From contig OZ024743.1 in the NCBI GenBank assembly GCA_964016885.1, forward strand, positions 171,523,244-171,587,243: a stretch of 64,000 nt of DNA. Reading direction: 5' to 3'. A program made the position numbers and the translations under genes. This document shows positions 930 through 51,546 of the stretch, one piece after another (positions within the stretch are counted from its first letter, which is position 1; every line of letters starts with the position of its first letter). Under the pieces are notes generated by a model that was not told the origin of the DNA, ran no database searches, and saw nothing but the letters and a program-made list of their open reading frames with translations. Source of the stretch: Eledone cirrhosa. Its lineage: Eukaryota; Mollusca; Cephalopoda; Octopoda; Eledonidae.

Positions 930-2350
930 ATGTTACTGAAAAACATACCTATACCTACAAACAAGGACTATACACTCGGCATGATACAGCGTACTAATGA
1001 TTTCATCCGTCGAATCCGATGGAAGGCCTACCATTACGATAAAGGACACGCTAATAACACGGAGGAATTTACTAGGAAAAAATACGGATTCAAATCCTGC
1101 AAAAATCCACCAAATAACCCCCAGCTCGACCTCATGAACATGATAAGTGTAACTAAATTAAAAAACGGACACATCACAAATTGCAAAACGACATCAATGC
1201 ACTACTAAAAAAACTACGCAACACCAACGGTATTATAGTAAAAGCGGACGTATACACCATGAGCCTTAATACATACAATCATTTTATACGCCGTGAATTG
1301 CACAAAAAATACAAAAAGACAACAGAATCTTCACTCACTAGCATTAATAAGGAAGGGCTTAGCATAGTAAAAAAACTGAAAATATCTTATAGATCCGAGC
1401 CTCTAACCCCCTTTAACCCCACATTTAATCTAAAGGATCACAAAAATAATTTCGAAATAGGCCCCACAATTAGATTAATATGCCCATCTAAGTCGGATAT
1501 AGGCAGAATTAGCAAGCATATACTAGATAGAGTAATCGCACAAATTAAGGAGAAAACTAATAATTAAGCTATGGGGTAACACTAACGAAGCAATAGATTG
1601 GTTCAGCAAAATAAACAGTAGAGAAACATCTAACTTCGTACAGTTCGACATTAATGACTACTACTCATCCATATCCCCAGTCACCCTGGGTAAAGCGCTA
1701 ACCTTTGCCCAGAAAAATTCGGACCTTACCTCGGACGAAATTAAAATAATAGGAATTTACAGAGACGATACACTCCTTCTAGCCAAAAACTTAAACAATC
1801 AAAATATGGAAAAATTATGAAAAAACATCAGTCTTCTTCAACAAACTAGGCCTAGGTATCACTTTCGAACTTAACTCTAAAAAAGCAAATTTCTTAGATG
1901 TAACACTCAACCTAAACACAGGATTAATAGAGCCCTTCCATAAGAATAACGAAAATCTAGCCAACATTAGTTATTACTCAACCCCCACTCGATCCCTAAT
2001 TAACTCCATAGCACATAGTATATCCCTCAGAATATCCCGCCTATCTTCTAACCTAGAAATGTTTAACGAACACGCAAACTATTATAACATAGCTTTACAT
2101 AAAGTTGGACATAAGGAGAAGCTGGAATACATACTAGATAGAGACAACAACAACAAACCTAACGACAACAACACTACCCGCTCATATAGAAATAACAAGC
2201 ATATGACTAAGTATAGAATTAGACAACGAGCGCCAAAAATAACTGAACAGAACACTAATATAAGGACCCCAAAAACTATAGAAGATCCAGAGATAGAAAG
2301 TACCTATTGTTCAATCCAATATTCAACTCCTGTATAAAAACTAAACTACC
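930..2350 (+). pseudogene. PLE reverse transcriptase remnant (PLE 1)
   Basis: Would have copied the element's RNA into DNA. Pieces in order: an N-terminal block (TNDFIRRIRWKAYHYD, about 990-1030), a finger block with FNLKDHK and RLICPSKSDIGRISKHIL (about 1420-1530), motif A as VQFDINDYYSSIS (about 1638-1678), then YRDD motif C (about 1757). Motif A runs almost directly into motif C: the motif B segment (G-x-x-DSA-E/D-V in sister copies) is missing, a deletion of several dozen residues. A thumb region follows (ISLRISRLSSN, LIDKHFP..HKY, IKLSYSTA). Several frameshifts and stops. Same lineage as the PLEs at 19585, 28765, 37930 and 39815. Confidence 0.85.
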
Positions 2351-2649
2351 TTCTACATTCTTTAAACTAATAGATAAGCACTTCCCTACACTACACAAAT
2401 ACCATAAAATCTTTAATAGAAAAACTATAAAACTTTCCTACTCTACTGCAGCCAACATAGTATCGCACATACGTAAGATCAACCACAAAATTATCTCTAA
2501 AGAAATTAACCTACCAACATGCACCATAACACCAAATACAAAACACAAACACATAACAACATCACAACCACAAACGCATCTGAACGCATAACAACAAAAC
2601 ATTAATAGGCCTAAATCACAACCCACCCACAACAATGAACCTGCACAAA

Positions 2650-3085
2650 ATAAAACCTGTAATTGCCACCTACCGGATAACTGCCCACTACAGAATAGAT
2701 GCCTGGATTCGAGTATGGTATACCTGTGTACTGTAGATTCAGGCAACTCTACTTGGCACTACATAGGTTCCACGGCTGGGGCGGTGAAGAAAATGTGGTA
2801 CGTCCACAGACACTCCATGAAGAACCGTGGACTGGAGGACTCTTAGCCGCTCGCCAATAAAATCTGACGACTTAAGGACAAAAACCTAGAATATAAGATT
2901 AGCTGGTCAAAATTATCGGTAGCAAGAGCCTAAAGCAACGGAATGTCCCACTGGGGGCTTTGTAATTTAGAACTACTACATATTTTAAGGTACGATGGGA
3001 TGCTGCTTAACATCAAAATAGAAAGATCAATTTTCTGTAGGCATAAAATAGCTATTACATTCACAAACTTCAAGCCACCATGATT
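2650..3085 (+). pseudogene. PLE GIY-YIG endonuclease domain (PLE 1)
   Basis: C-terminal nicking endonuclease of the PLE. A cysteine cluster comes first (CNCHLPDNCPLQNRC), then the GIY-YIG core as MVYLCTV..WHYIGSTAG, an R/H helix segment (HRHSMKNR), an L-I-LK block, the C-terminal LCNLELLHIL and an asparagine-bearing MLLN. Internal stops interrupt it. The order RT then EN places it among C-terminal-EN PLEs, not the permuted Naiad type. A very similar, less damaged copy is at 33560-34012. Confidence 0.85.
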
Positions 3086-5056: not shown

Positions 5057-5335
5057 CAAGTACTACCTATCCGAAAGATGCCCATTGAAGAATAATGCCT
5101 AGAGTCCAACATTGTTTATCAATGCACGGTCAAATCGAACGACCAGAAATGGTATTACATCGGGTCTACCACTACCTCCTTTAAATCTCGCTGGTATCGT
5201 CATCGATTTTCGATTAAACATCCTGAGCACCGTCTTGTAACCATGCTCGCCAATAAGACCAGGCAACTCCGTGAATGCAACCGGCAGTTCACCTTGAAAT
5301 GGGATAAATTATCCAGCGCTAGTGCATAATATATA
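5057..5335 (+). pseudogene. PLE GIY-YIG endonuclease fragment
   Basis: Translates in pieces to ERCPLK-N-CLESNIVYQCTV followed by KWYYIGSTTTSFKSRW and an LSSASA block, after which it stops at a (TA)n tract. It is a truncated near-duplicate of the endonuclease at 6195-6627, placed in front of the same element and next to the inverted terminal repeat. Confidence 0.82.
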
Positions 5336-5350
5336 TATATATATATATAT

Positions 5351-5478
5351 ACGAGGTGGGTCAAAAAAGTTCCAGGACTGATGTCACAAAAGATTTATTT
5401 CAAACACAAGCTTCACACTCCTTCAAAGTAATCCCCTTGGAGTCTAATGCACTTCTCCATCTTTTTCTGCCACGCTTA
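5351..5478 (-). mobile_element. Mariner-family transposon end (transposase C-terminus plus terminal repeat)
   Basis: On the minus strand this reads AWQKKMEKCIRLQGDYFEGV and stop, which resembles the last residues of a mariner-type transposase. An untranslated tail and a terminal-repeat-like end follow (plus strand ACGAGGTGGGTCAAAAAAG), directly beside a (TA)n tract; TA is the target dinucleotide of Tc1/mariner elements. Only this ~130 bp end is present, so it is a relic inserted within or captured by the PLE. Confidence 0.65.
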
Positions 5479-5480
5479 AT

Positions 5481-6035
5481 TTGAATACAGGACTGATACA
5501 ACCCTTCCACAAGATAAATGAGAACCTTACCTATATTAATTGTAACTCGAATCACCCACTTTCCATGATCAAATCGGTTCCTCGTAGTATTTCTCTCAGA
5601 ATCTCTCGCCTATCGTCTAACTCTGAGATTTTCAGTGAACATGCTGAATACTATAATAACGCATTAAGTAATGCAGACCACCGGGATAAAATAGAATACA
5701 TTGATAAGAATCTCCATAGCACACATAGCTACACACGAAATCAAAGAATATGTAACAGGGGTACAGAAATACAAGCGCACACACGCAGTACCACCAGACA
5801 TACTAATAATAGAAAATCATCACCAAACTCAAATATATTATACTGTAGAAAGTATATCTGGTATAATCCCACTTTTAATGCTTCGATTAGTACAAAACTA
5901 TCTCTTTCATTCTTTAAGTTAATTAACAAACATTTCCCCAATTCCCATAAATACAGTAAAATTCTAAACTCTAAGACTGTTAAGCTATCATACTCCACTG
6001 CACCAAACCTTGAAGAATACATAAAAAAAACTTAA
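5481..6035 (+). pseudogene. PLE reverse transcriptase thumb and linker (PLE 2)
   Basis: An open 184-residue stretch with the PLE thumb blocks GLIQPFHKINENLTYI, RSISLRISRLSSNSEIF, FFKLINKHFP..HKYSKIL and KTVKLSYSTAPNL. The catalytic palm (motifs A-C) is absent: the element is truncated just upstream, beside the mariner relic. A frame break separates it from the endonuclease at 6195. The first Met is only the first one in the frame, not a true start. Confidence 0.82.
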
Positions 6036-6194
6036 CTTAAAGCAATTATTAAACAACACTACAAAACAAAATATTTTAGAAACAGATGAGCATAACGTAA
6101 TATCAGCCTCCCAACCACCAAATGGGATACGTGTATTACACAACCCGCCTGAACTGTTATCCCAACCTATCCAGGGTACACCTAGTACCCACAA

Positions 6195-6627
6195 CAAAAA
6201 CTGCAACTGCCACCTACCCGAAAGATGCCCATTGAAGAATAAATGCCTAGAGTCCAACATTGTTTATCAATGAACTGTCGAATCGAACGACCAGAAATGG
6301 TATTACATCGGGTCTACCATTACCTCATTTAAATCTCGTTGGTATCGTCATCGACTTTCGATTAAACATCCTGAACACCGTCTTGTAACCATGCTTGCCA
6401 ATAAGACCTGGCAACTCCGTAAATGCAACCGGCAGTTCACCTTGAAACGGGATAAACTATCCAGTGCTAGTGCATATCGGAGTGGATTAAAGTACTGCAG
6501 ATTATGCAACCTTGAACTCTTTTATATCTTAAAATCCCAAAACAACTTACTAAATGACAGAATCGAACGATCGTTATACTGCAACTTCAAACTGAAGGCT
6601 AAATTTTCTCACTATCAAATAACTTAA
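6195..6627 (+). pseudogene. PLE GIY-YIG endonuclease domain (PLE 2)
   Basis: Cysteine cluster (NCNCHLPERCPLKNKC), then IVYQ*TV with one internal stop, YYIGSTITSFKSRWYRH, TMLANKTWQL, a C-R-L-C-NLELFYIL motif and NNLLNDRIERSLYC. All expected GIY-YIG landmarks are present apart from the stop. The right inverted pLTR follows after about 115 bp. Confidence 0.86.
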
Positions 6628-11468: not shown

Positions 11469-11881
11469 GCATATCCGGGAAATGCCTCTCTAGTAACCTT
11501 GTCTACAAATGTAAGGTTGAAACACCCACGTCCCGTAGGGCCTATATAGGGTTAACCGTCAATAGATTCTAGCAGCGTCTTTACATGCATACCCAATTCT
11601 TTTCTTAACCCTTTAAGAAGGAATATGATGTCACTTTCAGCTTATATCTGGAGTCTAAAAGACAACCACACCCAATATAAGTTACACTGGGAGATCCTAG
11701 CTTGGGTTAGATCGTATAACGTAAATAAAAGACCATGTGACCTTTGCGCCGTTGAAGCCCTGGAAATATTCTACGCCAAAGACCACATATTAAACAAAAA
11801 ATCTGAGGCAATTTCGGCTTGTAAACATAAATTGCACAAAACTTTCCTGTATTACAGCCCCACTTTATACCCTAACGGATA
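11469..11881 (+). pseudogene. PLE GIY-YIG endonuclease (copy of PLE 3)
   Basis: Reads SGKCLSSNLVYKCKVE, RRAYIGLT, then MTSLSAYIWSLKDNHTQYKL, CDLCAVEALEIFYAKDHILN and ACKHKLHKTF to a TAG stop at 11881. A frameshift lies between the YIG strand and the rest. The upstream cysteine cluster is cut off. Confidence 0.85.
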
Positions 11882-15412: not shown

Positions 15413-15639
15413 AATATATAAACAACTATCTGGTTGTGGAACCAACCAACCAACCAGAAATTTATAAATTCCTAAATTTATAAATTTATTATAATAAATT
15501 GAAGTGAAAGCAACTGGTGCGTGTGTTTCTTATTGGCAACATGACCCTCCCAAAGTATAACAATATCGGTTTCAACACACGTTTTCAGATAAAGAATCTT
15601 GCTAAACAAATTCAGAAACGAAATATATATATATATATA

Positions 15640-17085
15640 TAAAGGACTGAAATTCACACCAACACCACAATACTCTAACCTCAATGAGATAAATGACGAT
15701 ATCTCACACTTCTGTAGAAAATTACGTCTCACAGAGGAATTTTTTGACAGGGAGAATAACGACCAATCAATTGTACGGAATGAAAGCAGCTACAACCCAA
15801 CAAAGGGTAGGAACAGAGTTCTGGACAAATTTTGTGACCACATAGCAACTTTCCCATACCATGAACTACCGCAACTTAAACCCAAACCCAACACGAGTCG
15901 AAGGGAATGGGAGATTATCCATGAACTAAAAAACAATACTGACATTGTAATTAAGGAAGCAGACAAGGGAAGTACTGTCGTCATTATGGATGCTGAACAA
16001 TGTAAAGATTCTATGTTCTCTCTCTTACAAGATACTAACTACTATGAAAAAGTAAATAACTACCAGCAATCAAAAACGATGCCCAGATTAAACACATTCA
16101 TTTGTCGATAACAGGAAGACTTAACTTAAAAAGAACGCGATTATTTAACACATTTTGAATACAAAACCATCAACCTTTACGGACTTCCGAAGATCTACAA
16201 GTGTAAAATAATTAACGATGCCTGTAAAGAATCCACCCCAACCTGTGTGAACACACAAAACGCAACTGACCTTAAATTAAGACCAATTGTAGCCGGCCCA
16301 CAATGTGAAACACACAGACTAAACAACTTTATAGACATACTACTAAAACCAATTATTAAACACATACCAAGCCTTGAAAGAGACGATCTGGACCTCTCAA
16401 ACCACCTCCCCAAACATGTCAACTATTATTGTCTTTCGATGTAGTGAATCTCTACACAATGATCCCACACCAATACGGACTAGAAGCAATAGGATTCTGG
16501 CTAGAGAAATATCCCAATAAGATACGTGACAGAATAGAAATAAGCTTCATCACCGGGGTATTACAATTTATTTTACAGACCGGCTTTTTTGATTTCGATG
16601 GCAGTACTTACAAGCAAATATCGGGGACTGCAAATATCCAACTTATGCCAACTTAGTCATGGCATACTTGGAAGTCCAGATATATGAACACTCCAAATAA
16701 AAATACGGATTGAACTTCCACAAATATTTATCAGAGAATTGGAAACGCTACTTGGATGATTGTCTTATTCTTTGGTCTCACACACTCGACTAACTAAATG
16801 ATTTCAAAAATTTAATTTAACTGCATCAATGACGACATACAATTCACAAGATCAACTCCCATTTCTGGACATCTTAATCATAAAAAGAGACACAAATATT
16901 GAAACTGACATACACTACCAGCCAACAGATTCCAAACAATACCTGCTATTCACCTCCAACCATCCAAAGAACACGAAAACGAACAGCCCTTTTAACCTAG
17001 CATGAAGAATTTGCACAATTGTCTCCAATTATAAAACGCGAAATAAAAAACTTCAAGAATTAAATGAAATTCTGCTCTAGTACCC
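15640..17085 (+). pseudogene. Penelope/Poseidon-type PLE reverse transcriptase (PLE 4, first copy)
   Basis: A PLE lineage different from PLE 1-3. In order: GLKFTPTPQYSN, DKFCDHIATFPYHELPQLKP, DIVIKEADKGSTVVIMDAEQ, YGLPKIYK, LRPIVAGPQCETH, motif A as LSFDVVNLYTMIPHQYG, a Q-x-SGTA motif B cut by a small deletion, and YLDDCLILW motif C. These KADKG-, GLPKIHK-, RPIVSG- and FDVVSLYT-like blocks are characteristic of Penelope RTs. Frame breaks are frequent. The endonuclease is missing because the element is interrupted by a SINE near 17090. A second copy is at 24080-26280. Confidence 0.87.
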
Positions 17086-17185: not shown

Positions 17186-17265
17186 GCAAAGATAATATTG
17201 TCATCAGGGTATGGTGTCTGATCCCTAGAAAGTAGAAAATATATATACATACACATATATATATA

Positions 17266-17673
17266 TATACTATAATTGAATATAAAAGAAAAACGAACAC
17301 AGATATATACATATATGAGTTCAAATCGCAAGGACCAGATTCGCTAAGGTGAAAAGAATAGATAACAGGGTTTGCATGCCTCAATTTAAGAATAAATCAA
17401 GAAAATAAATACAAACCGGAATTGTGATAATTACCAATCACCCAGACAGCTCTTGGTGCTGTTTCGCAATATTAATTGTGAATAGGGTGATTGGTAGTTA
17501 CCACAATTCCGGTTTGTATTTATTTTCTTGATTTATTCTTAAATTGAGACAGGCAAACCATATTGTCTATAGTTAGTATTCTTTTCACCTTAGCGAATCT
17601 GGCCCCTTGCGATTTGAACACATATATGTATATATCTGTGTTCGTTTTTCTTTTATATTCAATTATAGTATAC
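17266..17673. repeat. 408 bp palindrome whose turn lies in an HHR half
   Basis: The arms (17266-17443 and 17485-17673) mirror each other, e.g. TACAAACCGGAATTGT and ACAATTCCGGTTTGTA. The 41-nt spacer 17444-17484 is, on minus, the 3' half of the hammerhead found intact at 17922-17999 (GAAACAGC..GCTGTC). The right arm starts within one base of the cleavage position. Confidence 0.88.
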
Positions 17674-18127
17674 GGCTCGGAAAAATCTCTTTCTTAGAGC
17701 TATTTTATTGTAAGAGACTATTTTGGGTTTCTAACTCAATATATACATTTGATATATTAGGCTCCGTTTATTGGTTGAGCTAATTCAAATGTCGAATAAA
17801 CCTGGCTGCTATTTTTAGTGGTGTAAGTTTGTGAGACACGCTAAGATACCATTTGCATTATTATATATAGCACACTATTCAGTTTCTTAATATACTTAGT
17901 AGTGTCTAGGATACTAATTCTTCACCCACTGATGAGCAAGAATTGGCATTTCTATTCGCAATTAATATTGCGAAACAGCACCAAGAGCTGTCTGGGTGAT
18001 TCATAGTTACCACAATTCCCGTTTGCATTTATTTTTTTGATTTATTCTTAAATTGAGACAGGCAAACCCTATTGTTTATAGTTAGTATTCTTTACACCTT
18101 AGCGAATCTGGTCCCTTGCGATTTGAA
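17485..18127 (+). mobile_element. Tandem pLTR / retrozyme-like unit
   Basis: Sequence starting GGGTGATTGG at 17485 recurs as TGGGTGATTC at 17993, giving a ~508 bp direct period with the ribozyme at the junction. The second unit is cut at 18128 by a long (TA)n tract. This arrangement matches tandem PLE pLTRs and animal retrozymes. No coding sequence was seen inside. Confidence 0.7.
17922..17999 (+). ncRNA. Hammerhead ribozyme, complete core
   Basis: Helix I TCACCCA (17922-17928) pairs with TGGGTGA (17993-17999), 7 bp. Core CUGAUGA at 17929-17935. Stem II is closed by GCAA (17936-17939) with TTGC (17968-17971). GAAA at 17972-17975. Helix III ACAGC (17975-17979) pairs with GCTGT (17987-17991) around a 7-nt loop. 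C17 is at 17992, so self-cleavage is predicted between 17992 and 17993. All invariant core bases are present. A caveat is an alternative hairpin CGCAAT/ATTGCG (17957-17972) that competes with stem II. HHRs in PLE pLTRs are established; this instance was folded by eye. Confidence 0.78.

Positions 18128-18188
<61 letters not shown>
18128..18188. repeat. (TA)n microsatellite
   Basis: About 60 bp of TA terminating the pLTR/retrozyme unit. Confidence 0.95.
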
Positions 18189-18328: not shown

Positions 18329-18704
18329 TAGAAATATTAAAACAATGAAATTAAACACAAAACTGTTAATTCATAGTAAAACTCATTACTTTACGATCGT
18401 TTATGGGAGGTAGTTCCCTGTATGTTCATTCAATTATTGATCTATGTAAAACATATTACAAAATATCATAGTAAGAAAAAATACATACGTCTTCAGAAAT
18501 TTCTGAAGACATGTATTTTTTTCTTACTATGATATTTTGTAATATGTTTTACTTTAGATCAATATGTAATATGTAATATGTAATATGTTTTACATATATC
18601 AATAATTGAATGAACATACAAGCACCTACCCACAGAAACGATCGTAAAATAATGAGTTTACTATGAATTAATAGTTGTGTGTTTAATTTCATTGTTTTAA
18701 TATT

Positions 18705-18706
<2 letters not shown>
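18329..18706. repeat. Large palindrome, centre near 18502
   Basis: Left arm AATATTAAAACAATGAAATT.. and right arm ..AATTTCATTGTTTTAATATT mirror each other, with centre CTTCAGAAATTTCTGAAG. The right arm has a short ATATGTAAT triplication. CUGAAGA occurs at the centre but no matching GAAA follows, so no ribozyme is called. Confidence 0.8.
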
Positions 18707-18738
<32 letters not shown>

Positions 18739-19584: not shown

Positions 19585-21582
19585 ATACCTAAAACTGATA
19601 CAGAAAACAGACGCGTTCATTAAAAGGTTGCGTTGGCACGCCTTTTACTTCGATAATCAGGGAAAAGCGGATAACAAACAGGATAAATTTGGGTTTAAAA
19701 CCTATAATAACCCTCTGAGTAACCAAGCCTTGCTACCCATCGAAATGATGTCTTGGAACTTATACGGAGTATCAAATTTCAGAATAGGAGCAATTCCTTC
19801 CAGCAGGATCTGAAGAATAGAATTCGTTCTATTAAGGATTCTAATGCCATGCACGTCCACTCCGACAAAACAGGCAATCTATATCAAGTGGAGCGCAGTA
19901 CTTACCATCAACTGCTACATAATGCTGTAACTAAGGATTACCGTAAAACTAATCTGAGCATCATTAATGACATCAACGATGCTGGGTTTAAAATCACCTC
20001 TGATCTCAACATCCTGGACCGGACTGAACGTCTGGACCCTATTTCTCCCCACATTACCCCGAAGGATCACTAATCCAATTTCCCGAACAACACCTCTATT
20101 CAGCTTATTAACCCTACGAAGTCCGATTTAGGTAGACTTAGTAAAATGATTTTAGATAGAATTATACCTGAAATTTGAAGTTTGGCCCCAATTGCACCGT
20201 GGAACAATTCTTTCGCGGTGATTGATTGGTTCAACGGCATATGCAACAAAGAACATTGCTGTTTTATCCAATTCAACATCAATAATTACTACTCCTCCAT
20301 CCCTTTACCACTTCTTCTGAGAGCTATCAATTTCGCTAAAACACTCACAGTGGTTAAGGATTTCGAAGTTGATGTCATCCTCAATGCCCGTAAGTCGGTA
20401 ATTAATTTCGACGACTCTATTTGGATAAAAAAATCTAATAGTACCCCATTCGACGTGAGTATGGGCGCCAGCGATTCTGCGGAGGTTACTGAACTTATCG
20501 GCCTTTTCCTTCTTTTCTCTATCAAGGAAGAATTCCCCTACGTGGGTGGTGGTTTGTACCGTGATGACGGTCTTTTGACCATGACAAGGTGCGGCCCACG
20601 CGCTTGCGACAGGTCAGAAAAGAACTCACAGCCTTCTTTTAAGGCTTCGACCTCTCCATACAGGTTGAAGCCAATCTCTCGGTAGTTAATTACTTCGACG
20701 TTACCCTCAATTTGTCGAATGGCTTGCACTACCCGTATAGAAAGCTGAATGATACGCTTACCCATCCTGCCAGTATAACCAAGAAACAAACAAGCATATT
20801 TTCACCGACCATTCCACATATTACAATGAAGCTCTTACTCGGAGTGGATTTGTCGATAAGGTAGCATATACAGAGTATGAGAATAGACCTAGGAAAAATA
20901 GATCCCGACGCATTATATGGTATAACCCACCATATAATATGGAGGTGGCCACACCATTAGCTAAGATCTTTCTCTCCCCTATTATGACCCCCCCCCAACA
21001 CATAAATATAGTAAAATGTTTATAGAAATACTATTATAATTTCTTACTGTTCGACTCCTAACCTTGCCTCAAATTTAGCTAAATTACCTAGCCGTAGAAA
21101 CACGTGCAACCCTGTAGCTAGTACTAACTGTAATTGTAGGAATCAGGTTGACTGCCTCATATCCGGGAAATGCCTCTCTAGTAACATTGTCTACAAATGT
21201 AAGGTTGAAACACCCACGTCACGTAGGGCCTACATAGGGCCTACATAGGGTTAACCGCCAATAGATTCTAGCAGCGTCTTTACATGCATACCCATTCTTT
21301 TCTTAACCCTTTAAGAAGGAATATGACGTCACTTTCAGCTTATATCTGGAGTCTAAAAGACAACCACACCCAATACAAGTTACACTGGGAGATCCTAGCT
21401 TGGGTTAGATCGTATAACGTAAATAAAATACCATGTGACCTTTGCGCCGTTGAAGCCCTGGAAATATTCTACGCCAAATTCCACACATTAAACAAAAAAT
21501 CTGAGGCAATTTCGGCTTGTAAACATAAATTGCACAAAACTTTCCTGTATTACAGCTCCACTTTATACCCTAACGGATAGTA
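19585..21582 (+). pseudogene. PLE reverse transcriptase plus GIY-YIG endonuclease (PLE 3)
   Basis: Most complete member of the main PLE lineage here. N-terminal block DAFIKRLRWHAFYFD (19610-19650), finger block with ITPKDH and NPTKSDLGRLSKMILDRIIP (20060-20170), motif A IQFNINNYYSSIP (20270-20305), motif B GASDSAEVTELIGLF (20464-20508), motif C LYRDDGL (20557-20577), then a degraded thumb, cysteine cluster CNCRNQVDCLISGKC (21130-21170), IVYKCKV, AYIG, IWSLKD, CDLCAVEALEIFY and a final stop at 21580. In motif A the catalytic aspartate of the sister copies (QFDIN) is Asn (QFNIN), which alone should abolish polymerase activity. Frameshifts near 19800, 20070, 20180, 20690 and later. Confidence 0.86.
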
Positions 21583-28764: not shown

Positions 28765-30410
28765 TTTTTAAAATAGATAACCGGATTGAAAGCCTAGCCA
28801 AATGTAAAGAATATATTACCCTTAAAAACCATGAATAGACTTTACTAATCGACCTAGCTGTAGACTGATTGAACCGGCTAAATCCGAAGTTGGCCTTGCA
28901 AGTAAAAAAATGTTAAGAAAAAGAATTCTCTAAGACTGACTTATCACAATGGTTAAATACATCCTCTGTTATTTCTTGGTTTAATAATATATAAGGCAAA
29001 AATAAGTGTAGATTTACCCAATTTGATATTGTTGAATTTTACCCCTCTATTACTCTCTCCTTATTAACTAAAGCCTTAGATTTTGCAAAACCTTTCATTA
29101 ATATTTCTAAATTAGATGAAGACATTATCTTTCAGGCTAGGAAAACCCTACTCTTTACTAATGAAAGTATTTGGGTTAAAAAGTCAAGCCCTGAACACTC
29201 TTTTGATGTTGCGATGGGTTCATATGACAGTGCGGATGTGTGTGACTTAGTAGGATTATTCCTTCTCCACACCCTTAAAGAGAAATTTCCTTCCCATAAT
29301 ATCGGTTTATACCGTGACGACGGATTGGCTGTTTCTCATACCACCAACGGCCATAACCTTGATAAATTCCGTAAAGATTTAATCAATACTTTTGCTAACC
29401 TAAGCCTTAAAATTACTATAGATTCGAACCTTACCAATGCTAACTTTCTTGACATTAATCTTGATCTACTTACTGCCTCTTTTAAACCTTATCATAAATC
29501 TAACGAGAATCTAAGATATATACACAAAGAGTCTTGCCATCCCCCTATAGTTTTTAAAAATCTTGTTCCCAATATTAGCCGTATGATTTTTACCTTATCT
29601 TCGTCTCTAGAGATTTTTAACAAAGCCGCTCCTTATTATAATATGGATCTCAATAACAGTGGCTTTACAGAACATATTAAATATTTACCTACTCCTTCCC
29701 ATAAAACTAATCACAATAATAGGAAAAGGAAAATTATTTGGTTTACACTCCCCTTCTCTCTAACTGTCAAGACTAATGTAGGAAGGAAATTCCTTGACCT
29801 CCTAGACAAACATTTTCCCCCTAATCATAGATATTATAAGATATTTAATAGAAATGTAGTTAAAATCAGTTACTCTTGCAGTCCATCAATGAAGTCTAAA
29901 ATCACCAACTCTAATCGTACGAGAATAAATCCAGGATGCAGTTGCAGGAAGTAGGATGAATGCACATTACAGGGAAAATATTATACCAAATCCGTTGTAT
30001 ATGAGGCCAAAGTGACACCGTTGATTAAAACCCAGCCAGCCAGGAGTGAACGATATGTTGGCATGACCTAGGACAGGTTCAAAACCAGGTTTTATGCACA
30101 TGTCACTTCTTTTAAACACTCTGATAAAAGAACAGCAACGGCTCTCGGAAATAATTTGTGGGAATTCAAAAACAAAAACATCCCGTACTCTATCGATTGG
30201 TCTATTTTAGACCATTCGAGGGAATACCAAAGGCGCACAAAGAATTGTTCTTTGTGTACCACTGAAAAATTTAGAATTCTACAAAATTTGAAAGCCACTT
30301 CCATTTGCCTTAACTCCAACACCGAGATCTTCAGATGTTGTCCTCACCTGAAATCACATCTGCTCTGTAACTGGATTGACATTCCTACGATAACTCAACC
30401 ACCTTGAACT
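28765..30410 (+). pseudogene. PLE reverse transcriptase plus GIY-YIG endonuclease (PLE 5)
   Basis: Damaged finger region (28770-28990), motif A TQFDIVEFYPSI (29017-29050), then an open 246-residue frame from 29214: motif B GSYDSADVCDLVGLF, motif C GLYRDDGLAV (29305-29334), thumb blocks NISRMIFTLSSS, LLDKHFPPNHRYYKIFNR and KISYSCSPSM, ending GCSCRK. A stop and frameshift follow, then the endonuclease: SVVYEAKV, ERYVGMT, a stop, RFKTRFYAH, NLWEFKNKNIPYSI, CSLCTTEKFRILQNL and CPHLKSHL. The catalytic palm is one of the best preserved in the window. Same lineage as PLE 6. Confidence 0.87.
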
Positions 30411-33386: not shown

Positions 33387-33559
33387 AGATATGGTTTTAT
33401 AAATATAGTTTCCATTTATTTAATATCGTATATATTTATATATATATACACACATACATATATACATATACATACACACACATATATATAAAAAACATAC
33501 ACACACATATACACACATATACATATTCACATTCATACTCATTGATACGCATGCTCAAC

Positions 33560-34012
33560 GGAGGACCTGCACACAGAAAAACCTCAAATTGTAATTGCCA
33601 CCTACCGGATAAGTGCCCACTACGGAATAGATGCATGGATTCGAGTATGGTGTACCTGTGTACTGTAAATTCAGGCAACTCTACTTGGCACTACATAGGT
33701 TCCACGGCTGGGGCGGTCAAGAAAATGTGGTGCGTCCACAGACACTCCATGAAGAACCGTAGACTGGAGAACTCTACGACGCTCGCCAATAAAATCTGGC
33801 AACTTAAAATCAAAAACCAAGAATATAAGATTAGCTGGTCAAAATTAACGGTAGCTAGGGCCTACAGCAACGGAATGTCCCACTGCGGACTTTGGAATTT
33901 AGAACTACTCCATATTTTAAGGTACGATGGGATGCTGCTTAACAGCAAAATAGAAAAATTAATTTTCTGTAGGCATAAAATAGCTACGTGTATGTGTTAT
34001 ATATGTGTGTGA
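33560..34012 (+). CDS. PLE GIY-YIG endonuclease domain, open frame
   Basis: Uninterrupted 156-residue frame (33542-34012). CNCHLPDKCPLRNRC cysteine cluster, SMVYLCTV (GIY strand), WHYIGSTAG (YIG strand), CVHRHSMKNRRLEN, LANKIWQLK, CGLWNLELLHIL, MLLNSKIEK and CRHK. Only the EN is present: the RT is missing and the sequence upstream is the right arm of the inverted repeat. It is less damaged than the copy in PLE 1 (internal stops there are sense codons here). It is a fragment rather than a gene, since no start or partner RT exists. Confidence 0.85.
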   Translation, partial: GGPAHRKTSNCNCHLPDKCPLRNRCMDSSMVYLCTVNSGNSTWHYIGSTAGAVKKMWCVHRHSMKNRRLENSTTLANKIWQLKIKNQEYKISWSKLTVARAYSNGMSHCGLWNLELLHILRYDGMLLNSKIEKLIFCRHKIATCMCYICV

Positions 34013-35379: not shown

Positions 35380-37250
35380 CTAATCCATTTTATTTATTTG
35401 TGGGTTGAGTCTACGTATGAGCAAGGCTTCCTTAATTCTTAAGTTGCCCACATTTCTATCACTGGCTTTAATGGTAATGGTAATATGTTGGTTGGTGTTT
35501 CTACATTTGTCGATGTCTTTTTTTAATGAGGATTTGCCTGTGTTGAGGTGTTCTTTAATGCGAGTGTGGAGTGCTCCAGACGTGCTACCAATGTAGAACT
35601 CCTTATATTTGTTGCATTCAATCCGGTATAACACATGTGTCCGCAGTATCGCGGATAGGCTAGTTAGTCAGCGAGATTTGATTGTTGTTGTCTCGGGATT
35701 GCTTTTGAGACAGGTATCCACGCAGTGAAGGGCCGGAGTGTGCTAACTGTATGTCCAGTCCTTCTTTGCGGATAGCTCTGCGGATAGCTGTGGTTATGCT
35801 TTCGCTGAAATGTGGTAATTTCCTGAAGCAGGTGTTAGTCGATTCATTGCGGGTGTTGGGTATCCATTCGTATTCAGTACATCTATGAAGTGTGCAGTAT
35901 CGGTGATCTGGTTCTCTGTCTTGTTACATTTATTCCGGATACGCTTAAGTTCATTTCTTGTGTATCCGGTTTTAGCACCAAGGGGAAGGGATGATCTATA
36001 ATGCACAAATAGGTCTCTGTTGGCAGCTTTCTTATAGAGCTTGGTGTATATAGTACCTTCATCTGTTACTCTAAGTTGGAAGTCCAGCAGAGACAAGGAA
36101 ACATTTTTTTATCGGGGTGCTCTGTGTTTGAAAATGCCGTAGATATTATGTCGGTCTCTTCACGGGATGATGTGAAGATGAGTATATCATCTATGTATCG
36201 GGTGAAGAAAACACAGAAGCGGCAGGTGTTTAGCGCTCGATGTTCCAGTTGGTATATATAGGTGATGGCTAGAAGGCCTGAAAGACTGGACCCTATGGGT
36301 AGGCCTGTGGTTTGGTTGTATGTGTGGTGGTAGAAAATGAAATAAACATATTCTACGATGACGGATAGAAGCTGATGTATGTCTTGTGGAGTGAGGTCAG
36401 AGCAATATATATTGTATGAAATGATGCTGTCAGTCACTAGGTTGACCGCTGGATGAGCGGGTACTGTCGTGTAGAGGGAAACAACGTCGAAGCTAAAGGC
36501 ATATTTGTCAAGTTTAAGTTGGTTAGGTTGTAGTTGTATGACTTCGTCGGAGCTGCTGACATGTCCAGGAAAAGTAGCAAGCATAGGCTCTGAGAGGAAC
36601 CAAGAGATTTTATAGAGGGGTCCTTCTATACTCGAGACAATTTGACTAATATGTAGATTAACACTGTTTTGTGGGTTTAAATGAGGTGGTAGAACGTTGG
36701 AAGTCTGCTGTTTCTAGTGGTGAGGTTGTTTTTATATTTGTTGGGGAGTTGTCTACGTCTGCAGATATACGTCCAGGTTGTGTTGATGTGATCTTCAATC
36801 TGGGATGCAGCTATGTCTGTCACTTCTGTATATAGTTCACCGTTATTAAGGTGCTCATATGCCCAACTGTTGTACGTGTCTCTCGAGATAACGCAGAATT
36901 CTTTCCCTTTGTTGGAAGGGAGGTATATGAGGTCCTTCTCTCGCATGGTGTTTAAAATGGGGTGTTCTTTCCTGGAATGTTTAGGGAGTACCTTCTTATG
37001 TTTCAGTAATATGCTAAAAATAGACTCATTAAGTCTGGAGAGTTTGAGGTCAAGCTCTCGTTTGATAGGCGGTGAAGAATAAGACTGACACAGCTTCGGT
37101 CGTTGGCTCACTAACTCAATATTTAAAATCTGTATTATTAAGACACAAACCCAAGAAAAATTAGAATGCACACGTATACATTAATTAGGGAGAAGAACGA
37201 TTTCGTGTGGGTGGAAAATTAGATTTTCCGGCCACGGACCAATCTATCTT
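35380..37250 (-). pseudogene. Penelope-like element F: reverse transcriptase plus GIY-YIG endonuclease
   Basis: Minus-strand PLE of a third lineage. In order: an N-terminal block with LYLPSNKGKEF-like sequence (37171-36677), EPMLATFPGHVSSSDEVI, motif A FSFDVVSLYTTVPAHPAV (about 36500), motif B TGLPIGSSLSGLLA, motif C RYIDDIL (about 36190), a thumb with LLDFQLRVTDEGTIYTKLYK, LPLGAKTGYTRNELKRI, then the endonuclease LYRIECNKYKEFYIGSTSGA, HTRIKEHL, NLRIKEALLIRRLNPQIN, stop at 35380. Only a few frame breaks (near 36700, 36080, 35700-35640): the most nearly intact PLE in the window. It has a strong HHR upstream and a weak one downstream. Confidence 0.87.
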
Positions 37251-37654: not shown

Positions 37655-37910
37655 TTAAGTATCGTGAGAGAGAAGAAGAGGTTTAAAGGGATAAGCGATA
37701 CTTATAGGTAGTTGCCAAAAGGTTGTGTATTTATGCTTAATACTTTTGCCTACAGGGTTAAATATTGGAAGCGTTAATATTTAGCGGGCAAGAAGATAAG
37801 CAGAGCGGTTACAAATGAAAGGATTACAAAGGAGAATATATACTGTCAGAACATGTTTATATAAACATGTTCTGACAGTATATATTCTCCTTTGTAATCC
37901 GTTCATTTAT
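37655..37910 (-). repeat. Inverted pLTR upstream of PLE 6, with 84 bp palindrome
   Basis: Holds GGGCAAGAAGATAAGCAGAGC, the reverse of a GCTCTGCTAACTCTCTTGCCC block at 41744-41764 in the 3' region of PLE 7. 37816-37900 is a palindrome centred at about 37860 (AACATGTTTATATAAACATGTT). Confidence 0.72.
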
Positions 37911-37929
37911 ATATATATATATATATATA

Positions 37930-39080
37930 CAGTGCTGATGTTTGTGATTTAGTCGGCCTATTCCTCCTACACACACTTAAAGAGAAATTCCCTAACCATA
38001 TTTTGGGGCTTTACGGCGACGATGGTCTAATACTTTCCCATACCACCATAGACCATAACTTAGATAGATTAAGGAAAGACTTAATAAACACCTTCGCTAG
38101 TTTTAATCTTAAAATTACTATTGACATTAACCTTTCCAATGTTAATTTTCTAGATATAAACATAGATCTGCCTACTGCTTCTTATAAACCATACCATAAA
38201 CCTAATGAAAATTTAAAATACATAAATAAAGGCTCTTGCCATCCTCCTATAGTTTTTAAAAACCTTATCCCTAATATTAGCCGTAGGATCTCCACCCTCT
38301 CTTCCTCAGAAGCTATTTTCAATAAGGCATCCCCTACTATAATAAAGCCCTTCAAAATAGCGGATTTAGCGAACCGATTAAGTACATACCCAACAATACT
38401 AACTCCTTTAAACATAATAATAGGAAAAGAAAAATAATCTGGTTCACCCCCCCCCCCCCCCCTTACTCTTTAGCAGTTAAAACTAAAGTAGGCAAAAAAT
38501 TCCTAGAGCTCTTAGATAAACATTTCCATAGAACACATAGATACTATAAGATCTTCAATAGAAACTGTGTCAAAATTAGCTACTCCTGCCGTCCCCCTAT
38601 TAAATCTTATATCATCAATAAGAAAACACCCAGAGAACATCAAAATTGCTCCTGTAGAGTCAAAAGTGAATTACAAGGTAAATGCAACACCAAAGCCATT
38701 GTATATGCGGCTAAAGTGACAATCATCAGCAACAACCAACCAGCCACCAGCGAACGATATGTGGGTATGACACAAGACAAATTCAAAACGCGTTATTACT
38801 CACATGTCGCATCTTTCCGACATCCAGAAAAAAGATTTACAACAGCTCTGGCTAGCAGAATATGGGATTTGTAAGACCAAAGTATCCAATATAAATTGGA
38901 TTGGTCAATTTTGAACCAATCTAAAGAATATGCAAGAGGAACAAGAAGATGCACACTCTGCATAAGTGAAAAATATTGGATTTTACAGAACCTTAAATCA
39001 ACAAAAACCTGCCTAAACGCAAAAAACAGAAATTTTCACCAGTTGCCCACACATGAAATCACACTTGCTCATATAAACTT
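37930..39080 (+). pseudogene. PLE reverse transcriptase C-half plus GIY-YIG endonuclease (PLE 6)
   Basis: Begins inside motif B (SADVCDLVGLF), then motif C as LYGDDGLI (YRDD in sister copies), thumb blocks NISRRISTLSSS, LLDKHFHRTHRYYKIFNR and KISYSCRPPIKS, cysteines in NCSCRV, IVYAAKV, ERYVGMTQDKFKTRYYSH, a stop after RIWDL, then CTLCISEKYWILQNL and a degraded end. Truncated 5' at a (TA)n tract. A run of C at 38447-38462 sits in the thumb and shifts the frame. Confidence 0.85.
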
Positions 39081-39428
39081 AACTCACTTTCAGATACTTA
39101 TCCTCCATAAACTCTTGTTCTTCACTTTCCTTAAATTATCCTCTTTACAGACTTCTCTTTCTGATTTACTTTCATTTTTAACTTTATTTTTAATTTTATT
39201 TTTATTTTTACTTCACATACACCAGTGAACCCTCCCCCCCCCTACTTTTTGATTCACTTACCTAATATCTTCATATTCCACATTTTACTTCCCCATTTTC
39301 ATTCACTACCTGATAATACTGTCACTTGCGTTTTCAACTCCAGATATATTCTGTTGGTTCGCAGCCGCTTTTATATTTGTACTCATTTATTCATACGGCT
39401 GGTTTATAATTTGTATCTATGCGTGTGA
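39081..39428. other. PLE 6 3' region, AT/pyrimidine-rich
   Basis: No coding signal. Resembles the T/C-rich 3' end of PLE 5 (30410-30640) in composition and position. Confidence 0.5.
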
Positions 39429-39800
39429 GTGTGCATATGTGTGTATACGTTCTGTATATGTATCCGAGCGCCTCCGTATGTGTGCATGCGTGCGTACATA
39501 TATGTGTGTGTATGTGTTTTTATATCTATGTTTTTTACATACTTATTTATACGTGTGTGTGTATGTGGGTTAATATATGTGTATATGTATGTATATATAT
39601 ATATATATATATATGTATGTAAATGTGTGTATGTATATATATATATATATAGTCGCGTACGTACGTGTGATTGGATATACATGTGGCGATATATATGTGC
39701 CTCGTGTGTATGTATGTACGCATGTGTGCGCTTTTGTCTGTACGTATTTATATGTATATATATTTATATATATATATGTGTTTACGTGCGTACTATATTT
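39428..39800. repeat. TATG/TGTG-rich and (TA)n sequence
   Basis: Microsatellite-like sequence of the type that follows other PLE 3' ends here. All frames in it are artificial. Confidence 0.85.
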
Positions 39801-39814
39801 TTTTTATTTTTTCT

Positions 39815-40010
39815 ATGCCTCCAACCACCCTAAGCAGACTCTCAACTCCATAGTCTATAGTATCTCACATAGAATCTCGAGACTATCCGCCAATGAGGAT
39901 ATCTTCAACCAAGCGGCAGATTACTACAATACGGCCTTGATAAGCGCCGGCTTTAACCGCGGAATTTCCTACATCCCGAACGCTAGCTCTAGAAAACCCC
40001 CCTCATAAAA
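39815..40010 (+). pseudogene. PLE thumb fragment (PLE 7, 5' part)
   Basis: Reads NHPKQTLNSIVYSISHRISR, LSANEDIFNQAADYYNTAL and ISYIPNASS, the start of the thumb in this lineage. Truncated 5' at the microsatellite. Frame lost before 40360. Confidence 0.82.
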
Positions 40011-40359
40011 CGAACGTTATAGTAAGCCATACCTATAACCGATCACGCGGCGACCTCGTTGAAGTCGGATATAGTAGAATAGATAACCGCACTAAAGATC
40101 ACGACCCCGGCGATGGTGACCACTGTAGATTACTCGAACGATTCCCCTATTACAAAACCAACAAAGGCGACGGCCTACTACCAACGCCTTCCAACCAACA
40201 TCTTCCTGTACATAAACATGGAAGAGGTAGTGCACCCGAGCATAAAGTGAAAAGTGCACTGAACGGGCGACTGCGCATTAACACACATAAGAGCGGTCAC
40301 CTAGATGGAACCACCCGTAGCAAACGTACAAGGACACGTAATCACCACCGTAACGTCCT

Positions 40360-41268
40360 ATGGTCCCCGCCTACTCTCGGAGTGTGGCCTCCAACATACC
40401 CCGGATGTTCTTCGAAGCCTTAGAGAAGAACTTCCCGCCCAACCATAGGTATAGAAAAATTCTTAATAGGATCAATATAAAAATATCCTTCTCTACTACT
40501 CCTAACCTAGCAGACATCATAGGAACAATGAACCACAGTAAGATCACCAAGACACAGCACCTCGACACAGACGCACCTACACCTGACAATAACTATATCG
40601 GCCTTGACAACTCCCTAATAGCATCCCATAGTGTTGGCAACGGCATCCGCAGACGCAACCAGCATAACCGCGAAATGACTGGGGAACATGCAGGACAAGA
40701 CGTGCGGAATAACAATCGCACCACCCGGCGTGCTGTGGGTTGTAATGGTGCTAACGACGGCTGCGGTAGCGTAGGTAACAACGTAGGCAGCAACAATGAT
40801 AGCCTTACCGTGGGAAATAGACGGAACAGCGACAGAAATTGCAACTGCCGCGACAGAGGACGCTGCCCCCTTAGAGGATACTGCTTGACTGATAGGGTTA
40901 TATATAGATGCACTATAACTAGCCACAATAGCGTTAAACATTATATAGGGGCTACCTCCGGGCCGTTCAAAATGAGGTTTCGAACACATCTCCACTCTTT
41001 CACAAATAAAAAACTTAGACACACCACTTCGCTCGAAGACTACATCACATCACTAAAGGACTTAAACATCATCTTATCCACGCACTGGGATATTGTCGGC
41101 AGGGCTGCACCGTACAACTTCAAGAGGAAATGCGATCTTTGCCTCATGGAGCTCTACCACATCATAACTGCACCCCACGAGCTCATCAACAGCAGAGCTA
41201 AAACAGCGAAAAGTTTAACACATCGCTTAAAAATATCCTTCTTCAGATGGGTTAATGATGAGGAGTGA
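40360..41268 (+). CDS. PLE 7 thumb, Gly/Asn-rich linker and GIY-YIG endonuclease, open frame
   Basis: An uninterrupted 302-residue frame, the longest undamaged PLE frame here. Residues about 15-45: MFFEALEKNFPPNHRYRKIL and IKISFSTTPNL (end of the RT thumb). About 90-165: hydrophilic Gly/Asn/Arg-rich linker. About 166-180: CNCRDRGRCPLRGYC cysteine cluster. Then VIYRCTI, KHYIGATSGPFKMRF, HTTSLEDYITSLKD, CDLCLMELYHII, ELINSRA and THRLKISF before a TGA at 41268. All GIY-YIG landmarks are present. The frame has no RT upstream, so it is the 3' part of a 5'-truncated element. The first Met is arbitrary. Confidence 0.85.
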   Translation: MVPAYSRSVASNIPRMFFEALEKNFPPNHRYRKILNRINIKISFSTTPNLADIIGTMNHSKITKTQHLDTDAPTPDNNYIGLDNSLIASHSVGNGIRRRNQHNREMTGEHAGQDVRNNNRTTRRAVGCNGANDGCGSVGNNVGSNNDSLTVGNRRNSDRNCNCRDRGRCPLRGYCLTDRVIYRCTITSHNSVKHYIGATSGPFKMRFRTHLHSFTNKKLRHTTSLEDYITSLKDLNIILSTHWDIVGRAAPYNFKRKCDLCLMELYHIITAPHELINSRAKTAKSLTHRLKISFFRWVNDEE

Positions 41269-45908: not shown

Positions 45909-46950
45909 ATGGCTAATTCACCTATGCACCAAGCAGCTGGGAGCCTTCCTCACAAACTAACACCTCACACCGACTCCACCATAGTAAACATTACTACGTT
46001 TGCCAACACAAATAATTTAAGCAGTAGCAATATTTTAAATTTGTCTCAGGCACACATTCATTTCCCGACATTACCAATGACTGCAGGTGTTAAAGCCGCC
46101 ACCAACACCACCACCGCCGCGACAACCACCACCGCGACAACAGAAACAAAAGGAAAAAATAAATCAACTCGTGATGTCGAAATGTTTTCAACCAAAATGG
46201 ACTCTTCCACACCGAACACCACTGACGTCACCACCACCACAACTGAAACTAAAATTAATAATAACAAAAAATAACGATAACAACAACAGCAACAATGACA
46301 TAAAAAAACCACCCTGAGTTTTGCCAGAGTAGCAAAACAGTGCGAAACATTTACAGTAACTCAGGAGGAATTAGAAAATGCCAAAAAAATGGTAAAGAAG
46401 ATGCGCAAATGGTCAGCCTCCCCCCACACACACCTAATAAAATGGAGCATCGGCGCCAATGCACCGTGTCGTATCGAACAATTAATGTAAAATCGCGCCG
46501 AGTGGAACGGGCATCCGAGTCCCAAATCAAAAAAGCTTTGGGACATGTGTGGGCAAGAAAAACCCGCATCAGACGTTGGCAGGAGTATGGAACCGTGGAC
46601 GTGTTCTTTGAAACACCAGAGGAGGCTAGAGAACACTCCATGGCCCCATTAAGAAGTGATGACTTCACACTCGTCCCAAGCTATTGTGGCCAGAGACTCG
46701 TAAAGATCAGGGTGACCCACGTTCCACCGGCCATCGAAATTTCCTGGCTAATAGCGGCCGTCCTCGCCGGCATCGAAGCCAACACAAAGATAATAGCAAT
46801 AGCAAAAGAAAAGCAGGAGAACTGGTCCGGATCTGGGATGGAGCTCCTGATCCAAGGGGACCAAAAAAGCATTGAGGAGATCCCAGAGGTAATAGACCTC
46901 ACTGACGGCAGCCACCTTACCGTAATTGTCGAGGGCAGAAGGCTAAAAGG
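45909..46950 (+). pseudogene. LINE ORF1 (RNA-binding protein), N-terminal and central part
   Basis: Starts ATGGCT after an A-rich stretch. A Thr/Ser/Asn-rich N-terminus (to about 46270) is followed, after a frameshift, by QEELENAKKMVKKM, and after another by the conserved core: SESQIKKALGHVWARK, TVDVFFETPEEA, LVPSYCGQRLVKIRVTHVP, WLIAAVLAGIEANTK, SGMELLIQGDQKSIEEIPEV. The inverted relative at 53669-55540 has the same core followed by a CX2CX4HX4C knuckle. Here that knuckle is deleted: the frame ends soon after VEGRRLKG. Confidence 0.8.
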
Positions 46951-47826
46951 TTGAGGCCACCTCTCCTACCCACCCCAGTGACTCAACCATCAACACCACC
47001 AGTAGCAGAGATGGCAGCAACAAATGTAGCAGCAACAACAGAAGCAACTATAACAGCAACAACCCCAGCAACAGTAGCAAAACCAACATCACCACAACCA
47101 GCAAAACCAACACCACCACCACCCAACGCTTCAGAACTAGCACCAGCGCCTACACCATCCACCACGCCACAACCAAAACTAACGCCTGTGGAGGATTTTC
47201 CACTCCCCGGCCTATCACAACTGAAGACAGATTGTGACGACGAAGAGTGGGAAACGGTATCTGGAAAAAAGAAAAAAAGAAACCAAAAAAGAAAAAATTC
47301 TCTTCCTTCCCCCTCCAAAAACAAAATACAGAGGGAAACAACTAAATTAACAAACAAAAAAGTTAGGACAGATATGCCACCAGCATCACCAACCCCATCA
47401 CCCCATACACCAACACCATCACCATCATTAACTCCAACACCACCATCACCTACACCACAAAAGTCACCAAAATGCGAAACAGAAACAAACCCACAACAAA
47501 CGCAAACAAAACAAAACAACCAAAACGATACACACTACACAGCATTAAATTTGAACAACAAGCAATTATTACACTACATCCAACACAACACCAGCATCAC
47601 AGAAAAAGACTACACAACAACCCAAAAATTCACACCACTTCCACACATTCAAATCACTCGCATCACACAGAAAACGTACATGACACTAAAACAAAAATTC
47701 CCCAAAGACATCGGAGACTTCCGACAAGCACTCTCCAGGAGGATTTATAAGGACATCGTTCCTGAGGAGGCCACAAGCAGTGAAAAGGATGGAAAAACCG
47801 TCCTTCCTCTACGAGAAGTAAGGTAA
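46951..47826 (+). pseudogene. LINE ORF1 C-terminal Pro/Thr-rich region
   Basis: Open 291-residue frame, low complexity (Pro, Thr, Ala) with an acidic DDEEWETVSGKKKKRNQKR block that resembles GWQKVVRRHKRR in the inverted relative, then a less repetitive end (DIGDFRQALSRRIYKDIVPE). It follows directly from the preceding frame by a short overlap, so both belong to one ancestral ORF1. Confidence 0.7.
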
Positions 47827-47869
47827 GTGGTCTTTCCCATCTTTTCCACTCCATTTCAACATGACCTCA

Positions 47870-51290: not shown

Positions 51291-51496
51291 TGGTGGTCAG
51301 GGTCACTGCTGTCTTTTAATGGGCTTTCTCCACAAATGTCCCTCGGATGTCTCCCCCCTATTGGGGAATTTTTCTTTGTTATTTTATTACATCCTCTGTT
51401 TTTTACACGCAGAAATGCCCATTTGTACCGTCCTGTATTGTCCTGTACTGTCCTTAATGTCTACTTTATGTAAACCCTTGTGGTTAATAAAGAAAA

Positions 51497-51497
<1 letters not shown>

Positions 51498-51530
<33 letters not shown>

Positions 51531-51532
51531 GT
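51498..51532. repeat. (ATT)n tract at the tail-to-tail LINE junction
   Basis: 3' tail of the plus LINE; on its other side stands TTCTTTGAGTCTCAGTCA, then the minus LINE. Confidence 0.95.
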
Positions 51533-51546
51533 TCTTTGAGTCTCAG

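What the first reader, a model, noticed from the sequence alone, without database searches (positions are those of the whole stretch)
17922..17999. Complete hammerhead ribozyme in a PLE terminal repeat
All invariant HHR features line up on the plus strand: 7 bp helix I (TCACCCA/TGGGTGA), CUGAUGA, closed stem II, GAAA, 5 bp helix III (ACAGC/GCUGU) with a 7-nt loop, and UC before the cut at 17992/17993. A direct repeat starting at the cut gives a ~508 bp unit, as in retrozymes and tandem PLE pLTRs.
Basis: partly seen in the sequence, partly recalled or inferred. Interest (0 to 1): 0.9.

Follow-up and report, generated by a model that had tools for sequence, protein, structure and literature searches.

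The report
Ribozyme retroelement with Penelope-style insertion ends
The window carries one copy of a common, non-coding jumping element that contains a hammerhead self-cutting RNA motif, and the way its copies end and face each other in the genome suggests that a Penelope-type enzyme pastes it in.

Summary
The hammerhead motif at 17922-17999(+) is real, beyond chance, and repeated across the genome. Stem II is weaker than claimed, no Rfam model reaches its cut-off, and this copy has a private base that favours a competing hairpin.

It is not shown to be a PLE terminal repeat. The unit is non-coding, 509-519 nt, and lies head-to-tail without an ORF in two loci, like non-autonomous non-LTR retrozymes. 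The '508-bp repeat from the cut' is one junction: 2 of 131 inner cDNA ends lie near the cut, 2.3 expected.

What joins it to PLEs is how it inserts. cDNA 3' ends pile up at two internal sites (A, about u184-190; B, about u274), usually against (TA)n. Many insertions are two head-to-head cDNAs; where both outer ends could be classed, the arms started at different sites in 17 of 19 (first set) and 12 of 12 (loci read afterwards). PLE copies carry a similar 'tail' on one of the inverted pLTRs, explained in vitro by two RT start sites. A second hammerhead family here behaves alike (5 of 5). This is genomic evidence for the proposed, unproven idea that PLEs mobilise animal retrozymes. Self-cleavage and circular RNA are untested.

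The parts
17241..17265 (.). left (TA)-rich flank of the insertion
   Evidence: sequence
17266..17484 (-). left arm: inverted cDNA from site A (unit position u189) back through u1 into the hammerhead (u469); its hammerhead lacks CTGATGA
   Evidence: model R1 hit 17427-17496(-) 46.1 bits
17485..18144 (+). right arm: one full unit plus the start of the next (to u152), running into (TA)n
17667..17673 (+). site A, u184-190: one of two places where cDNA 3' ends cluster in other copies
17757..17757 (+). site B, u274: the second place where cDNA 3' ends cluster
17922..17999 (+). type I hammerhead ribozyme motif, predicted cut 17992/17993
17957..17972 (+). competing hairpin CGCAAT/ATTGCG that takes up the G of GAAA; strengthened by G17958, found in 1 of 50 copies
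18130..18188 (.). right (TA)n flank
   Evidence: sequence

Best explanation
This is an old insertion of a non-coding, non-autonomous retroelement whose 509-519-nt unit carries a type I hammerhead ribozyme (retrozyme-like). Its RNA, multimeric or circular with the hammerhead uncut or re-ligated, is copied by a Penelope-type RT/GIY-YIG enzyme supplied in trans. The enzyme opens both strands of a (TA)n tract. One strand primes at internal site A, the other at site B; the two cDNAs run round the unit, stop at variable places and are joined head to head. Shown: the motif, the repeated unit, tandem ORF-free units, two preferred 3'-end sites, one site per arm, (TA)n flanks, copies that read through the hammerhead. 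Inferred: which enzyme does it, that both target strands prime, a circular template, ribozyme activity.
For: Family: 1470 and 1472 first-look candidates (40 scored in each). Core CTGATGA/GAAA/TC intact in 24 of 30 and 37 of 50 aligned hammerheads. Helix III pair 3 is G-C in 27, A-U in 15, G-U in 3, unpaired in 1 of 46 distinct rows. Tandem units without ORF: three in L049, 519 bp apart, and two in L083, 506 bp apart with intact cores. 55 of 75 arm 3' ends fall at u182-191 or u272-276; 47 of these 55 have (TA)4+ within 30 nt, against 6 of the 20 other ends and 171 of 2493 random flank 30-mers. Arms start at different sites in 17 of 19 first-set and 12 of 12 held-out classifiable insertions. 35 of 131 arm segments are longer than one unit. 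A second hammerhead family: right ends at one of two sites against (TA)n in 10 of 10 loci read, different sites in 5 of 5 where a left end was found. PLE precedent: tail on one of the inverted pLTRs (PMC3846280 passages); two RT start sites, both strands cut and extended, AT-rich targets (PMC11167929 main text).
Against: No RT-encoding PLE with these sites was identified; 1 of 9 RT-like ORFs tried matches Pfam at E<=0.001 (no better). In vitro PLE data saw no strand difference in start site, whereas here the arms differ. 10 of 29 and 8 of 20 two-armed insertions could not be classed, because an outer end fits neither site or because of how the script clustered pieces. Stem II pairs 3 and 4 are broken in 21 and 16 of 46 rows. 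The hammerhead fold is never the predicted minimum in 50 copies: median 3.8 kcal/mol above the ensemble. Core conservation is not significantly above its surroundings (6/377 against 85/3705, p = 0.25), and copies were picked by similarity. All three tandem hammerheads of L049 have altered GAAA letters (AAAA, AAAA, GAAG). The 30-nt span used for (TA)4 includes the last 6 nt of the element, which are AT-rich.
Confidence: 0.7

Rival explanations
1. The unit is the pseudo-LTR of an autonomous PLE in this genome; the ORF-free copies are solo or truncated derivatives.
For: Inverted arm, one-arm tail, direct repeat and hammerhead are PLE pLTR features (PMC3846280; PMC11167929); unrelated sequence captured between solo pLTRs is documented; a review proposes that retrozymes arose by reduction of PLEs (PMC11722881 passages).
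Against: tblastn of 12 window ORFs: among the 30 hammerhead loci L009-L038 only L020 has a hit, about 230 nt away from the element; among L049-L103 (55 loci, a few of them the same place) only L050, at the far end of the locus, and L051, which is the window itself. The queries are fragments of this window, so an unrelated PLE would be missed. Copies longer than a unit continue into more unit, not into an ORF. Helix III is 5 bp, unlike described PLE hammerheads.
Confidence: 0.22
2. The hammerhead is vestigial: the element spreads by PLE-type priming and does not need cleavage.
For: Inner ends are not enriched at the cut; PLE hammerhead mutants insert normally in vitro; stem II is weak and the core is not detectably better conserved than its flanks; the three tandem hammerheads of L049 have altered cores.
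Against: G-C to A-U change in helix III with G-U forms; 37 of 50 cores intact; the tandem pair of L083 has two intact cores.
Confidence: 0.35
3. A palindromic DNA transposon (foldback or MITE) that happens to contain a hammerhead-like sequence.
For: Strong inverted repeat 17266-17672.
Against: The two arms end at different unit positions, inner ends vary, head-to-tail multimers occur and arms exceed one unit: cDNA features.
Confidence: 0.03

Closest known systems
Metazoan non-LTR retrozymes (PMC7229834: abstract, sections 14 and 17, passages)
   Same: Non-coding, AT-rich unit with type I hammerhead, head-to-tail copies, many loci (about 5000 hammerhead copies in a mussel), co-occurring with minimal-hammerhead elements.
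   Different: 509-519 nt, against repeats of 150-450 bp there (its discussion speaks of circRNAs of 150 to >1000 nt); mostly single or head-to-head insertions in my sample; 5-bp helix III with 7-nt loop; irregular stem II; PLE-type ends, not mentioned in the parts I saw (the word 'inverted' does not occur in its main text).
Penelope-like elements with pLTR, tail and hammerhead (PMC3846280, PMC11167929)
   Same: Inverted arm, tail on one arm only, two internal RT start sites downstream of the hammerhead, AT-rich target.
   Different: No ORF found here; PLE hammerheads are described as lacking helix III or loop contacts (PMC7761336); the stretch between the two sites is about 85 nt here, against a 30-40 bp tail.
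Second hammerhead family of this genome (L039-L048)
   Same: Two 3'-end sites against (TA)n, different sites on the two arms.
   Different: Short canonical stem II and a helix III of two pairs with a 3-nt loop; the ten loci are the best of 74 listed Hammerhead_1 matches, 15 of which pass the Rfam cut-off; no sequence relation to the 509-nt unit found.

Membership tests
Type I hammerhead ribozyme | Core CUGANGA, GAAA, UH before the cut, open helix I | tested here: met
   37 of 50 aligned hammerheads intact
Type I hammerhead ribozyme | Three helices maintained across copies | tested here: inconclusive
   Inner helix I 98.8% and helix III 96.5% of cells paired, with a G-C to A-U change; stem II closing pairs 79.9%, pairs 3-4 broken mainly in one subfamily
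Type I hammerhead ribozyme | Score over a curated Rfam hammerhead cut-off | tested here: not met
Type I hammerhead ribozyme | Self-cleavage | not testable with these tools
   needs RNA
Non-LTR retrozyme | Non-coding head-to-tail units with type I hammerhead | tested here: met
   L049 and L083; longest open stretch 62-68 aa in two units; tandem is the minority arrangement in the sample
Non-LTR retrozyme | GC below 50% | tested here: met
   0.33 in the L049 unit
Non-LTR retrozyme | Repeat size 150-450 bp | tested here: not met
   509-519 bp; the paper's discussion allows circRNAs up to >1000 nt
Non-LTR retrozyme | Circular RNA of unit length | not testable with these tools
   no RNA data held
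Penelope-like element | RT and GIY-YIG ORF between pLTRs | tested here: not met
   within flanks of about 1-1.5 kb and with ORF queries from this window only
Penelope-like element | Inverted arm with tail at the 3' end of one arm | tested here: met
   29 of 31 classifiable two-armed insertions, of 49 two-armed
Penelope-like element | Two internal RT start sites, AT-rich target | tested here: met
   Genomic ends only:

The most novel reading that the evidence does not exclude
An animal retrozyme whose genomic copies record a complete two-strand, two-site Penelope-type integration: one target strand primes at site A and the other at site B of the RNA, and the palindromic (TA)n target lets both ends be filled from the same kind of RNA, making a head-to-head pair at the insertion. 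This would settle which enzyme class moves animal retrozymes and would show that PLE RNPs assign different start sites to the two strands in vivo, which the published in vitro assay did not show.
Probability: 0.5. Interest if true: 0.72.

Novelty: new variant of a known kind. Interest (0 to 1): 0.55.

Why it matters
The retrozyme literature leaves open which reverse transcriptase mobilises animal retrozymes and names PLEs as a strong candidate (PMC7229834; PMC11722881; PMC8969392). End structure in dozens of insertions now points to a PLE-type enzyme and gives an exact, testable rule: one arm, one site. It also bears on why a PLE tail is found on one of the inverted pLTRs (my inference).

Tried and rejected
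Tried without result: a protein search with a PLE-like ORF of the window found nothing. Pfam, NCBIfam and PDB searches named only one window ORF, RVT_1, so calling the others PLE-like rests on recalled motifs (GIY-YIG, YRDDGL). A shared motif (CGGCTC) just 3' of the start sites in the two hammerhead families looked real by eye but was not significant (576 and 669 of 1000 shuffles as good) and was dropped. Overlapping laps of one cDNA were more alike than to the mean of other elements clearly in 5 of 10 copies (L038, L049, L052-L054), not in the window copy, so circle against linear multimer is undecided. Clustering of cDNA ends at the ribozyme cut was tested and not found. A paper looked up for RAGATH-1 deals with RAGATH-18 (passages). 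Two papers that would matter, PMC8557442 and PMC4209133, are not held. Rejected: a palindromic DNA transposon. Rfam miRNA hits on the palindrome (below cut-off) are taken as artefacts of inverted repeats. Rows dropped before counts: L017-L019, L025, L026 (segmental duplicates of L011), L029 (same insertion as L028), L001, L050, L051 and L055 (same places as loci kept). L020 was left out of the two-armed count by the clustering step although its ends are A and B. In one search some 'other' ends are alignment splits (for example L038 at u507, L049 at u509). The relaxed hammerhead scan has no shuffle control.

Full report
1. The motif. A match this complete occurs once in the window and in none of 40 dinucleotide shuffles. 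Rfam gives no match at gathering score in the 64 kb; locally the best are RAGATH-1-hammerhead, 18.9 bits, and Hammerhead_3, 18.1, both far below cut-off. The long stem II insert is the likely reason (inference).

2. The family. A 141-bp query gave 1470 candidates, 40 scored, 30 fetched. In these 30 loci, window included, the core is intact in 24. With a second, diverged sample the core is intact in 37 of 50 aligned hammerheads, chosen as the better-scoring of 59 model matches. Core positions are not significantly more conserved than neighbours (6/377 against 85/3705, p = 0.25; 4/312 against 73/3065, p = 0.15 without five duplicates), and sampling by similarity biases this, so conservation alone does not prove function.

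3. Structure. The reading I favour is: helix I UCACCCA/UGGGUGA with a 5' bulge UUCW and an outer UACUAA/UUGGUA; stem II GCAA/UUGC plus a distal hairpin GAAUUGG..CCUAUUC and a 3' bulge; helix III ACAGC/GCUGU. In 46 distinct rows the outer and inner parts of helix I and helix III are paired in 96.4, 98.8 and 96.5% of cells; helix III pair 3 is G-C in 27, A-U in 15, G-U in 3. The A-U rows are mainly one subfamily, so this may be one event. Stem II pairs 3 and 4 fail in 21 and 16 rows, so only two stem II closing pairs are constant. Cells with a change on both sides: 16 against 6.5 shuffled (0 of 500 shuffles as high), but that control does not allow for relatedness; pairs with such a change were 2, reached by 99 of 500 shuffles. 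The consensus fold of 16 rows prefers other pairings in the core and stem II. The hammerhead fold lies 1.0 to 11.1 kcal/mol above the ensemble, median 3.8; the window copy, 7.8, is fifth worst of 50. G17958, found in 1 of 50, lengthens the competing hairpin. This copy is therefore probably impaired even if the family is active.

4. Not a repeat defined by the cut. The window element is two arms between (TA) tracts: a left inverted arm 17266-17484 and a right arm 17485-18144. Across 76 loci and 131 aligned arm segments, 2 inner ends lie within about 4 nt of the cut (one is an alignment split inside L049), 2.3 expected by chance; 97 segments read straight through the cut position; 35 exceed one unit. 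The loci were found by the hammerhead, so the 97 is not a family estimate, but those copies need a template whose hammerhead was uncut or re-ligated, and the 35 need a circular or multimeric one.

5. No ORF. An exact pattern for a whole unit found six places, one of them the window; two lie in one locus that holds three hammerheads 519 bp apart, head to tail. Their GAAA letters are altered (AAAA, AAAA, GAAG). A second tandem, L083, has two hammerheads 506 bp apart, both with intact core. The longest open stretch in the two units tested is 62 and 68 aa. tblastn with 12 PLE-like ORFs of the window hit near 1 of the 30 loci L009-L038 (L020) and, of L049-L103, only L050 and the window's own L051.

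6. Two start sites. I mapped arms onto the 509-nt unit (u1 = first base after the cut). In 43 loci, 27 of 75 3' ends lie at u182-191, 28 at u272-276, 20 elsewhere; (TA)4+ lies within 30 nt in 22 of 27, 25 of 28 and 6 of 20, against 171 of 2493 random flank 30-mers. The 30-nt span includes the element's last 6 nt.

7. One site per arm. I wrote down the prediction that the arms differ, fetched 33 unread loci and ran one script on both sets, with A = u180-192 and B = u264-278. First set: 29 of 43 loci are two-armed, 19 have both outer ends classed, 17 differ; exceptions L028 (A/A) and L054 (B/B). New set: 20 of 33 two-armed, 12 classed, 12 differ, p = 2^-12 under even choice. Other outer ends, 13 of 71 in the first set and 10 of 52 in the second, fit neither site and are not explained; some lie close (for example u174-175). 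Of 49 head-to-head junctions most overlap or gap by a few bases, median overlap 1, with a range from a 43-nt gap to a 46-nt overlap.

8. A second family. Rfam Hammerhead_1 finds other hammerheads in the genome, 15 of 74 listed matches over the cut-off. The ten loci fetched (L039-L048) share a short hammerhead and end on the right at one of two places, each against (TA)n, in 10 of 10; a left end was found in 5, all five at the other site. The expressions were made from ends seen, so this is a description, not a held-out test. No sequence relation to the 509-nt unit was found.

9. Comparison with print. [quoted passage not shown] In PMC11167929 (main text) a purified PLE protein cuts and extends both strands at AT-rich DNA, starts internally at two places, and the tail is the stretch between them; no difference between strands was seen in vitro, and ribozyme mutants inserted normally. 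In PMC7229834 (abstract, sections 14 and 17, passages) animal retrozymes are tandem non-coding repeats and PLEs are 'a strong candidate' for moving them; PMC11722881 and PMC8969392 (passages) say much the same. In PMC7761336 (passages) PLE hammerheads lack helix III or loop contacts. Searches listed no paper on cephalopod or octopus hammerheads that I could recognise (the one listing with both words, PMC10886601, only cites plant retrozymes and an octopus SINE paper), and in what I saw none describes PLE-type ends of retrozymes. This covers only the held library; two likely papers are not in it.

10. Verdict. By sequence and arrangement the element is retrozyme-like but larger than the published repeats. 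By its ends it is PLE-type. The simplest account is a non-autonomous element moved by a PLE enzyme. What the hammerhead contributes is unknown; if PLE insertion does not need cleavage, it may serve to release units or may be decaying.

Noticed in passing
33330(+), 32387(-), 37446(-), 42074(-): Four further hammerhead-like motifs with minimal helix III (6 nt between A15.1 and U16.1), each followed about 50-60 nt after the cut by a TA-rich tract; 32387 and 33330 are head-to-head copies. Three pass the scan with shuffle control, 42074 only the relaxed one.
   Followed up: partly
61017(+): Hammerhead-like motif CTGAAGA with a strong stem II (GTCCG/CGGAC) and a palindromic helix III CCATGG; no shuffle control.
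   Followed up: no
18330-18707: Palindromic repeat directly downstream, many matches genome-wide, apparently a separate MITE-like element.
   Followed up: no
1157-3062, 5075-6606, 11471-11852, 15593-16108, 19798-21550, 28941-30368, 33389-33994, 36069-37180(-), 37898-41265: Many broken RT / GIY-YIG-like ORFs, most related to one another by tblastn; only 36069-36713(-) matches Pfam RVT_1. PLE-like by recalled motifs.
   Followed up: partly
46304-51624(+) and 51547-55594(-): Two partial copies of a LINE-like element (endonuclease and RT ORFs, recognised by eye), converging at about 51.6 kb.
   Followed up: no
37811-37910: Near-perfect palindrome that draws miRNA hits in Rfam, all below their cut-offs.
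   Followed up: no
L013, L034, L049, L053, L098 and others: 23 outer cDNA ends at neither start site (13 of 71 in the first set, 10 of 52 in the second); some run into (TA)n that may have eaten into the unit.
   Followed up: no
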